DNA from: an uncultured Rhodospirillaceae bacterium
Lineage (GTDB): Bacteria; Pseudomonadota; Alphaproteobacteria; Rhodospirillales; Casp-alpha2
Reading direction: 5' to 3'
DNA length: 64,000 bases
NCBI GenBank assembly: GCA_913030825.1
Contig: CAJWCU010000011.1
Coordinates: 62,001-126,000, forward strand
Positions 38,026 to 39,260 of the stretch are shown here, piece by piece. The first letter of the stretch is position 1. Every line of letters begins with the position of its first letter. The notes beneath the pieces are model-generated. The model did not search any database. It had not been told where the DNA came from and worked only from the letters and a program-made list of their open reading frames with translations. Both the position numbers and the translations under genes were made by a program.

Positions 38026-38460
38026 ATGACAACCCCGGACGACATGCCCGACCCCTCCGAAACCGGCCCTGGCGGCGAAGAAGAGACGCCGCGCGGCGAA
38101 CTGGCGATCCGCACCCTGGCCATGCCGGCCGACACCAATCCGTCGGGCGATATCTTCGGCGGTTGGGTCATGGCGCAGATGGATGTCGCGGGCGGCATCG
38201 CGGCGGCCCAGCGAGCCGGTGGCCGGGTCGCGACGGTCGCCGTCGACGGGTTCATCTTCCACAAGCCGGTGAACGTGGGCGATGTCCTCTGCTGCTATGC
38301 CGAGGTCGTTCGCGTGGGCATCACCTCGATCGCTATTCGCATCGAGGCCTGGGCTCTGCGGCAACGGGTACGCAACAGACGGGTCAAGGTGACCGAGGGC
38401 ATCTTCACCTTCGTCGCCTTGGACGAAGCCGGGAAAAAGCGGCCCGTGCCGGAAGCCTAG
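38026..38460 (+). CDS. YciA-type acyl-CoA thioesterase
   Basis: The 144-residue hotdog-fold protein has the YciA/BACH pattern: MPADTNPSGDIFGGWVMAQMDVAGGIAA (35-62), with the catalytic Asp in NPSGDIFGG, and VDGFIFHKPVNVGDVLCCYAEV. An acidic N-terminus (1-27) is added. Such enzymes cleave fatty acyl-CoA in the cytoplasm. It ends 170 bases before the convergent 26-codon SOS-boxed gene, with a strong hairpin between them. Confidence 0.9.
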   Translation: MTTPDDMPDPSETGPGGEEETPRGELAIRTLAMPADTNPSGDIFGGWVMAQMDVAGGIAAAQRAGGRVATVAVDGFIFHKPVNVGDVLCCYAEVVRVGITSIAIRIEAWALRQRVRNRRVKVTEGIFTFVALDEAGKKRPVPEA

Positions 38461-38597: not shown

Positions 38598-38619
38598 GGG
38601 GCGCGCCAAGGGGCGCCCC
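38598..38619 (-). terminator. Hairpin just after the 26-codon ORF
   Basis: GGGGCGC (38598-38604) pairs with GCGCCCC (38613-38619), starting 11 bases beyond the small ORF stop on the minus strand. It is very GC-rich but lacks a T-tract. Confidence 0.45.
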
Positions 38620-38630
38620 GGCGGCCATCC

Positions 38631-38711
38631 TCAGCCGACCACCATGCAGGCATAGCCGGCGGTGAACATCAGGGCGAGGGCGGCGAGTTCGTTCAAACGG
38701 GACATCAGCAT
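38631..38711 (-). CDS. 26-residue putative membrane peptide under tandem LexA boxes
   Basis: Too short for ordinary gene finding, but the unit is complete. GGGGAG lies 8 bases before the ATG at 38711; a second ATG two codons on (MLM) is an alternative start. The peptide begins MLMSRLNELAAL and ends AGYACMVVG, with one basic residue near the start and then about 18 mostly hydrophobic residues, fitting a single inner-membrane helix. Two exact GAAC-N7-GAAC boxes lie 31-66 bases upstream, with TTGACA as -35 just beyond. A GC-rich hairpin follows the stop. GC-rich third positions match local genes. By analogy SidA of Caulobacter is a 29-residue SOS-induced membrane division inhibitor; shared function is inference. 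A longer minus-strand frame through this region only shadows the thioesterase gene. Confidence 0.6.
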   Translation of the reverse strand: MLMSRLNELAALALMFTAGYACMVVG

Positions 38712-38741
38712 GGGTCATCTCCCCAAGGGTTGAAAACAATG

Positions 38742-38756
38742 GAACATTGTGTGAAC
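38742..38756 (-). promoter_or_regulatory. LexA box 1
   Basis: GAACATTGTGTGAAC matches the alphaproteobacterial LexA site GAAC-N7-GAAC (GTTC-N7-GTTC on the minus strand) exactly. It lies 31 bases upstream of the 26-codon ORF, around or just past the transcription start. Confidence 0.75.
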
Positions 38757-38758
38757 GG

Positions 38759-38788
38759 AAAAGAACATAACAAGAACATGTGTGTCAA
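38759..38788 (-). promoter_or_regulatory. Promoter of the SOS-boxed small ORF
   Basis: On the minus strand a consensus -35 TTGACA occupies 38788-38783. At the normal 17-base spacing the -10 is weak (TTCTTT, 38765-38760). The two LexA boxes overlap this region. Confidence 0.5.
38763..38777 (-). promoter_or_regulatory. LexA box 2
   Basis: GAACATAACAAGAAC is a second exact GAAC-N7-GAAC site, 6 bases from the first. It falls within the -35/-10 spacer, so bound LexA would block polymerase. Confidence 0.75.
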
Positions 38789-38873
38789 CACAATTTCGTC
38801 ATCCCCTTTCGTCGCGTAGGAAAAGCGCAGTATTCTGCGGCTCGGAACTGAGAAAACGACGGGGGTGCGTTTC

Positions 38874-39260
38874 ATGACGGGATCGGCATTTAAGGCGGCG
38901 ACGGGCGTTCTGCTGTGCGGGCTGCTCTGGTCGACCGGATCGGTTCAGGCCGACCAGCCCCAGGTGATTGCCGCCGAGGCCTCGCCCAACGGCGACGGCA
39001 GCTACACCGTGTCGGCGACGATCCGTCACGGCGATACGGGATGGGATCATTACGCCGACAATTTCGAGGTACTGGGCCCGGACGGCACCGTGTTGGAACG
39101 CCGGGTGCTTTATCACCCCCATGTCGATGAACAGCCGTTCACGCGCTCTGTCGGTGGGGTGAACGTGCCGCCGGGTATCAAGCAGGTGATCGTGCGGGCC
39201 CATGACAAGGTTCACGGATACGGAAACGCGACCGTCACCGTCACGTTGCCCGACCGCTGA
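38874..39260 (+). CDS. Exported protein of unknown function
   Basis: The ATG at 38874 is preferred (GGGGG upstream); an in-frame GTG three codons earlier is possible. The 128-residue product has a signal peptide (hydrophobic 6-20, cleavage near VQA-D), then an all-beta domain: repeated strands such as DGSYTVSATIRHGDTGWDHYADNFEVLG and QVIVRAHDKVHGYGNATVTV. It resembles small periplasmic immunoglobulin-like proteins but no family is recognised. The His/Tyr-rich motifs might bind metal. It is divergent from the SOS-boxed small gene, with about 85 bases between the -35 box and this start. Confidence 0.65.
   Translation: MTGSAFKAATGVLLCGLLWSTGSVQADQPQVIAAEASPNGDGSYTVSATIRHGDTGWDHYADNFEVLGPDGTVLERRVLYHPHVDEQPFTRSVGGVNVPPGIKQVIVRAHDKVHGYGNATVTVTLPDR

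What the first reader, a model, noticed from the sequence alone, without database searches (positions are those of the whole stretch)
38598..38788. SOS-controlled 26-residue membrane peptide gene
Seen: on the minus strand, TTGACA (38788-38783), two exact GAAC-N7-GAAC boxes (38763-38777 and 38742-38756), GGGGAG, an ATG at 38711, a 26-codon ORF with one hydrophobic stretch, a stop at 38631 and a GC-rich hairpin 11 bases on. Known: GTTC-N7-GTTC is the alphaproteobacterial LexA box, and Caulobacter SidA is a 29-residue SOS-induced inner-membrane inhibitor of cell division. Inference: this is a new SOS peptide, possibly a division brake. It is too short for standard gene calling.
Basis: partly seen in the sequence, partly recalled or inferred. 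Interest (0 to 1): 0.87.

Follow-up and report, generated by a model that had tools for sequence, protein, structure and literature searches.

The report
Conserved DNA-damage-controlled membrane micropeptide family
A 26-residue membrane peptide gene that annotation misses sits behind DNA-damage (LexA) operator sites and belongs to a new peptide family found in many Rhodospirillales-type bacteria and at least one other group, probably acting as a brake on cell division while DNA is repaired.

Summary
The gene is real. An order-wide profile search matches 141 of 317 genomes, at least five by chance. Of 138 members read from DNA (the window's own included, 134 genomes), 93 have an exact LexA-type box within 200 nt upstream in either orientation and 130 have one with at most one mismatch (random stretches: 8 and 332 of 2423). 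The ORF evolves as a protein (pN/pS 0.23; pS above pN in 143 of 143 pairs). 136 of 138 members have Glu/Asp 12 residues before a conserved Tyr, and none has K, R, D or E after it. A family outside the order carries it behind boxes too. No Pfam, NCBIfam or PDB match and no convincing PHROG match was found. Best reading: a new family of SOS-induced single-span peptides that works like Caulobacter SidA, a brake on septal wall synthesis. SOS control and coding are strongly supported; induction, target and division arrest are inferred. Homology to SidA could not be tested.

The parts
38631..38711 (-). 26-codon ORF, MLMSRLNELAALALMFTAGYACMVVG, single hydrophobic span; family hallmarks E8, A11, L12, F16, A18-G19-Y20
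38763..38777 (-). LexA-type box 1, GTTCTTGTTATGTTC (the box kept in the genus)
38742..38756 (-). LexA-type box 2, GTTCACACAATGTTC, 21 bp downstream of box 1; exact also in the closest relative G007, degenerate or absent in the other same-genus genomes
38783..38788 (-). TTGACA, -35-like hexamer just upstream of box 1; the consensus scan found no -35/-10 pair here
   Evidence: similar TTGAC or TTGC elements before the box in relatives, by eye
38719..38724 (-). Shine-Dalgarno, GGGGAG, 7 nt before the ATG
   Evidence: 110 of 138 members have 4 or more matched SD bases (starts were chosen partly by this score)
38441..38457 (-). terminator-like hairpin followed by a T run, inside the 3' end of the convergent thioesterase gene
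   Evidence: similar hairpin-plus-T sequences after the ORF in some relatives, by eye

Best explanation
The locus is a monocistronic LexA-repressed gene for a 26-residue inner-membrane peptide. In undamaged cells LexA sits on the GTTC-N7-GTTC box(es) just downstream of the -35 element and blocks transcription. After DNA damage RecA-triggered LexA cleavage frees the promoter, and an mRNA with a short leader and a good Shine-Dalgarno is translated. The peptide inserts as one helix, N-terminus in the cytoplasm (K/R before the acid, none after). It binds a membrane protein through conserved residues (Glu/Asp, Leu, Phe, small residues, Tyr). The likeliest target is the septal wall synthase FtsW/FtsI or a partner, as for SidA and YneA, so that division waits for repair. 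Shown here: operator, coding selection, family-wide conservation, motif. Inferred: LexA binding and induction (about 0.95 likely), membrane topology (about 0.9), protein target (about 0.75), division arrest via the septal synthase (about 0.55).
For: Box plus ORF co-conserved: 93 of 138 exact and 130 of 138 with at most one mismatch, against 8 and 332 of 2423 random stretches. Same genome: lexA, an ImuA-type gene and a tag-type gene follow exact boxes. lexA promoters could be parsed in 12 of 14 relatives: 9 of these carry an exact box and all 12 a box with one mismatch. Coding: pN/pS 0.23, pS above pN in 143 of 143 pairs, third positions change most. Motif: E or D 12 before Y in 136 of 138, no K/R/D/E after it in any of 138. 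The gene keeps its place near yciA and/or parE in 97 of 142 loci, yet is mostly still box-controlled where the neighbours differ (families f19, f81). Papers, passages seen: SidA is a 29-residue SOS-induced inner-membrane inhibitor that interacts with FtsW (PMC4211646). YneA binds TM7 of FtsW through its TM segment, and low-confidence models place SidA, SosA and ChiZ there too (PMC13396833).
Against: No expression, binding or phenotype data. The SidA sequence was not in any collection reachable here, so homology is untested. E. coli TisB and DinQ are SOS peptides of the same size class that are not known as division inhibitors, so size and regulation do not fix function; in YneA the TM segment alone binds FtsW but does not block division (PMC13396833). 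A one-sided helical conservation face was not significant (p 0.15 at 100 degrees). 176 of 317 genomes of the order gave no match. 8 of 138 members have no box within one mismatch, and 14 percent of random stretches have one.
Confidence: 0.6

Rival explanations
1. A TisB/DinQ-like SOS membrane peptide (type I toxin style): it lowers the membrane potential and slows growth or favours dormancy, held in check by LexA and perhaps an antisense RNA, without a specific divisome target.
For: Same size class, SOS control and single hydrophobic span; DinQ is 27 residues, LexA-controlled, inner-membrane and depolarising (PMC3567139, passages).
Against: The leader looks short: box end to start codon median 40 nt (the transcription start itself is unknown). 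Good Shine-Dalgarno, one match in most matched genomes, conserved chromosomal position in 97 of 142 loci, no match of the window peptide in phage or plasmid records (divergent members were not searched there). K/R/D/E lie only at the N-terminal end, whereas DinQ has Glu17 and Arg20 in its helix. Antisense RNA was not tested.
Confidence: 0.2
2. A regulatory micropeptide for another membrane enzyme (transporter, sensor kinase, respiratory complex, wall hydrolase) adjusted during the SOS response, not the divisome.
For: Conserved residues inside the span suggest a protein partner; box-less second copies in four f20 genomes next to an MFS-like gene (gene type by eye) suggest the family can be used outside SOS.
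Against: No conserved operon partner was seen: the nearest neighbours are convergent or divergent genes and differ between lineages.
Confidence: 0.22
3. Not a protein gene: the boxes drive a non-coding or antisense RNA (for example against the convergent yciA, or reading through to parE), and the ORF is incidental.
For: The transcript would run towards yciA and parE, which often lie downstream; no strong terminator directly after the stop.
Against: pN/pS 0.23 with pS above pN in all 143 pairs; conserved acid and Tyr; SD and ATG in most; the gene persists where yciA/parE are not in the fetched flank (f19, f81).
Confidence: 0.02

Closest known systems
SidA of Caulobacter crescentus
   Same: Alphaproteobacterial, SOS-controlled, 29-residue inner-membrane peptide (PMC4211646, passages); same size class, SOS control, one hydrophobic span.
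   Different: Sequence relation untested (SidA sequence not held). SidA is shown to interact with FtsW and block division; nothing of that kind is shown here.
YneA (Bacillus), ChiZ (mycobacteria), SosA (Staphylococcus)
   Same: DNA-damage-induced small membrane division inhibitors; YneA contacts FtsW TM7 by its TM segment (PMC13396833, passages).
   Different: They have further parts (LysM in YneA and ChiZ, an extended helix in SosA); the window peptide ends with its hydrophobic span and has no such part.
DinQ and TisB (E. coli type I toxin peptides)
   Same: LexA-controlled membrane peptides of 27 (DinQ: PMC3567139, passages) and 29 residues (TisB, recalled).
   Different: Those loci have antisense RNA control, and DinQ has charged residues inside the helix; here an apparently short leader, a conserved chromosomal locus, K/R/D/E only at the N-terminal end.
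DidA of Caulobacter
   Same: Small single-span division inhibitor induced by DNA damage (PMC4211646).
   Different: 71 residues, SOS-independent (DriD), interacts with FtsN.

Membership tests
   Two exact boxes in the window; 93 of 138 members exact within 200 nt, 130 of 138 with at most one mismatch
Alphaproteobacterial LexA (SOS) target genes | Genome has LexA using this operator on its own and other repair genes | tested here: met
   lexA in own genome behind an exact box; ImuA-type and tag-type genes behind boxes; in relatives 12 of 14 lexA promoters parsed, 9 with an exact box, 12 with one of one mismatch
Alphaproteobacterial LexA (SOS) target genes | RecA/LexA-dependent induction by DNA damage | not testable with these tools
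   needs RNA or protein data
SidA | About 29-residue single-span inner-membrane peptide under LexA | tested here: met
   26 aa, family median 27 (22-39 with script-chosen starts); hydropathy of the 18 residues after the acid 1.95 for the window, mean 2.05 for the family; membrane location itself is predicted
SidA | Sequence homology to Caulobacter SidA | not testable with these tools
   no SidA sequence or named Caulobacter genome could be read
SidA | Binds FtsW and blocks division without disturbing the Z ring | not testable with these tools
YneA / ChiZ | TM segment plus LysM domain | tested here: not met
   26 aa, no Pfam family for the window peptide
TisB / DinQ type I toxins | Antisense RNA antitoxin and regulated leader | not tested
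   leader looks short (median 40 nt from box end to start); no antisense RNA search beyond Rfam at gathering scores, which gave only two tRNAs in the window
TisB / DinQ type I toxins | Depolarises the membrane | not testable with these tools
   bench work

The most novel reading that the evidence does not exclude
This is an ancient, unannotated family of SOS micropeptides, present in many families of the Rhodospirillales-type order and in at least one family of another alphaproteobacterial order. It would be a general alphaproteobacterial DNA-damage checkpoint that docks on the septal wall synthase through a conserved acid and tyrosine in one membrane helix. Caulobacter SidA would be either a strongly diverged member or a convergent copy.
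Probability: 0.45. Interest if true: 0.85.

Novelty: new variant of a known kind. Interest (0 to 1): 0.74.

Why it matters
[quoted passage not shown] A family of about 27 residues with more than 130 readable members, a conserved acid and tyrosine and culturable hosts (Terasakiella pusilla, Magnetovibrio blakemorei) would give a natural mutagenesis set for how one membrane helix could stop the divisome. It also shows that operator-guided searches find conserved micropeptides that gene callers miss.

Tried and rejected
Rejected: (1) chance ORF: conservation and codon test. (2) Non-coding RNA only: codon test; Rfam at gathering scores finds only two tRNAs in the window. (4) Known family: for the 25 members of A1 no NCBIfam match and best Pfam E 0.28; for the 65 of A3 no Pfam match up to E 0.1 and PHROGs only phrog_10404 (3 members, best E 0.023) and phrog_28000 (1 member, 0.07), not convincing; no PDB sequence up to E 1. 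(5) Mobile element: no match of the window peptide in phages or plasmids. (6) Helical conservation face: not significant at 100 degrees (p 0.15-0.23 over three ranges), larger at 90 degrees only after looking. (7) My first conclusion "this order only" was wrong. Class-wide searches with A1 and A2 (385 genomes each) gave no hit that I recognised at the time; one search looked for boxes at 28 of those loci in one orientation only. The wider profile A3 (357 genomes) then showed three f81 genomes with boxes, and G202, already listed, has a reversed box. One search looked at 81 class-level loci in both orientations but only at matches with fewer than 30 codons to the stop, and so missed L288 and L366, which one search shows. 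(8) G248 and G435 peptides have no box and are left open. (9) 53 of 76 stretches of the genome contigs pattern scan were judged chance by ORF shape. (10) Literature: eight searches listed no title or abstract start that describes this peptide; some searches listed only 12 of 70, 12 of 45 and 8 of 12 papers. Most subscription papers are missing from the library, and the original SidA paper did not appear in any listing. Passages only were seen of PMC4211646, PMC12700426, PMC13396833, PMC13384398, PMC4211644 and PMC3567139.

Full report
Observation. The consensus scan finds no sigma-70 promoter pair. The GC-rich hairpin after the stop is no more stable than shuffled sequence; the terminator-like site on this strand downstream of the ORF is at 38457-38441. 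Boxes are not rare in themselves: 4 exact in the window, 2.4 expected; 55 with at most one mismatch, 53.8 expected; 117 exact in the genome against 69 for the backward control. So the case rests on conservation.

Operator. The genome gives one LexA match (Pfam and NCBIfam lexA) and its gene follows an exact box. An ImuA-type gene, a tag-type methyladenine glycosylase gene and a PA0069-type radical SAM gene also lie directly behind exact boxes. The ImuA and tag NCBIfam scores are below the curated cut-offs; tag passes in Pfam; the longest frame of the radical SAM gene begins inside its box, so its start is probably later. In 14 relatives chosen across families, the lexA start could be parsed in 12. 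Nine of these have an exact box on the opposite strand, and all 12 have GTTT-N7-GTTC (one mismatch) on the gene strand. This may explain why members in several families have GTTG-N7-GTTC instead of the exact form.

Relatives. The window peptide finds 35 of 200 genomes at E up to 1, eight of them of its own genus, its own included. Three of the loci from this search (L053, L054, L058) have no box and look like chance. A profile of 25 peptides (A1) finds 106 of 317 genomes of the order at E up to 0.1. A profile of 86 (A2) finds 141 of 317, 55 of 115 genera. Five of these (G129, G126, G073, G112, G637) match only in part and within frames of 188 residues or more and are taken as chance; G682 probably too. 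I fetched 74 weaker matches and 35 new ones. Two were dropped, L278 (long frame) and L266 (no start codon found). With 31 loci from the earlier searches this leaves 138 members in 134 genomes, the window's own included. They carry 17 family labels by my count.

Box and ORF together. In the first 103 members, 65 have an exact forward box within 130 nt upstream, 33 more one with a single mismatch, 5 none. The backward control motif is exact in 0 and one-off in 12; random 130-nt stretches of the same loci give 3 exact and 151 one-off of 3834. Over 138 members and 200 nt, either orientation, 93 are exact and 130 within one mismatch; random 200-nt stretches 8 and 332 of 2423. At one mismatch the background is thus 14 percent, so the exact figure is the stronger one. 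Members are related, so these are not independent observations.

Coding. 143 pairs of same-length members with at least 60 percent identity give pooled pN/pS 0.23, with pS above pN in all 143, and changes 754, 364 and 1628 at codon positions 1, 2 and 3. The pairs are not independent. 133 of 138 start with ATG and 110 of 138 have four or more Shine-Dalgarno bases, against 7 percent of random positions; the start codons were chosen partly by those two features, so these figures are inflated.

Anatomy. Lengths are 22 to 39, median 27. In A2 the Tyr is invariant, the acid 12 before it is Glu or Asp in 96 percent by weight, and A11, L12, F16, A18 and G/A19 are mostly kept. Over 138 members the acid position is E 96, D 40, G 1, N 1, and no member has K, R, D or E after it. 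Members were anchored on that Tyr, so its constancy there is by construction. Hydropathy and the N-terminal charges suggest one span with the N-terminus inside.

Context. 97 of 142 loci (the 138 members, three f81 loci and L288) have a YciA-type thioesterase gene and/or parE within the fetched stretch, usually the thioesterase convergent and parE on the same strand beyond it (window genes named). 25 members from family f19 are mostly 32 residues long; 22 have an exact box within 130 nt. None shows yciA or parE in the fetched stretch, though two of these stretches reach less than 180 nt downstream.

Beyond the order. Profile A3 (65 peptides) against 357 genomes of the class gives G467, G372 and G249 of family f81 with ORFs of 32 residues behind exact boxes. 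Of 20 genomes of that family, 16 match at E up to 0.5, two of them (G543, G710) only within long frames. I read 14 of the 19 listed places, leaving out four in frames over 360 residues and a second match of G249. 12 of the 14 have an exact box within 200 nt of the chosen start, one has a one-mismatch box, one none. In L387, L389, L390, L392 and L393 the start is uncertain, and L387 and L394 run on past the usual end. G202 of family f34 has a possible member lacking the Tyr behind a reversed box.

Names. From the named scan, members occur in Terasakiella pusilla DSM 6293, Terasakiella brassicae, Magnetovibrio blakemorei MV-1, four other Magnetovibrio records, a Thalassospiraceae MAG and various Rhodospirillales or unplaced alphaproteobacterial MAGs (NCBI lineage of two). 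Two MAGs labelled Methylocystaceae are also among them.

Function. The peptide is most like SidA in size, SOS control and class of bacteria (PMC4211646, passages), and recent work suggests that SOS membrane inhibitors converge on FtsW (PMC13396833, passages). The same paper warns that the TM segment of YneA alone binds FtsW without blocking division. TisB and DinQ show that similar size and regulation can serve another end (PMC3567139, passages). The apparently short leader, the conserved locus and the lack of a phage or plasmid match for the window peptide favour a chromosomal checkpoint peptide over a toxin module, but do not prove it. I could not obtain the SidA sequence, so I do not file this as SidA. 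Novelty: a new family of a known kind of thing.

Noticed in passing
L281, L348, L349, L350 (genomes G693, G184, G174, G690, family f20): Second copies of the peptide without an exact LexA box, beside an opposite-strand MFS-like gene (by eye): a possible SOS-independent paralogue, reminiscent of the SidA/DidA pair.
   Followed up: partly
L311-L324 (lexA promoters); L211, L249, L253, L261 and others of f20, f6, f11: Variant operators recur: GTTT-N7-GTTC in all 12 parsed lexA promoters and GTTG-N7-GTTC in peptide promoters of several families.
   Followed up: partly
L362, L363, L366, L387, L391-L394 (family f81): Two exact boxes in opposite orientation, 27-28 nt apart, precede the peptide.
   Followed up: no
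L172:1008-1325 (+), own genome C21: A 105-residue protein without Pfam or NCBIfam match starts 30 nt after the first base of GAACAAAATAAGAAC (an exact box in reverse): another candidate unknown SOS gene.
   Followed up: no
L167:1047-1427 (+) and L169:1-1014 (-), own genome C6 and C16: A glyoxalase-fold protein and a PA0069-family radical SAM protein lie directly behind exact boxes.
   Followed up: partly
window 38865-39260 (+): Divergent neighbour, 131 residues, apparently exported (by eye), no Pfam or NCBIfam family, yet matched in 47 of 142 peptide loci.
   Followed up: partly
L096, L143 (JABXIC01, JABXIG01): MAGs labelled Methylocystaceae carry the Terasakiella type of peptide; possibly mislabelled.
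   Followed up: no
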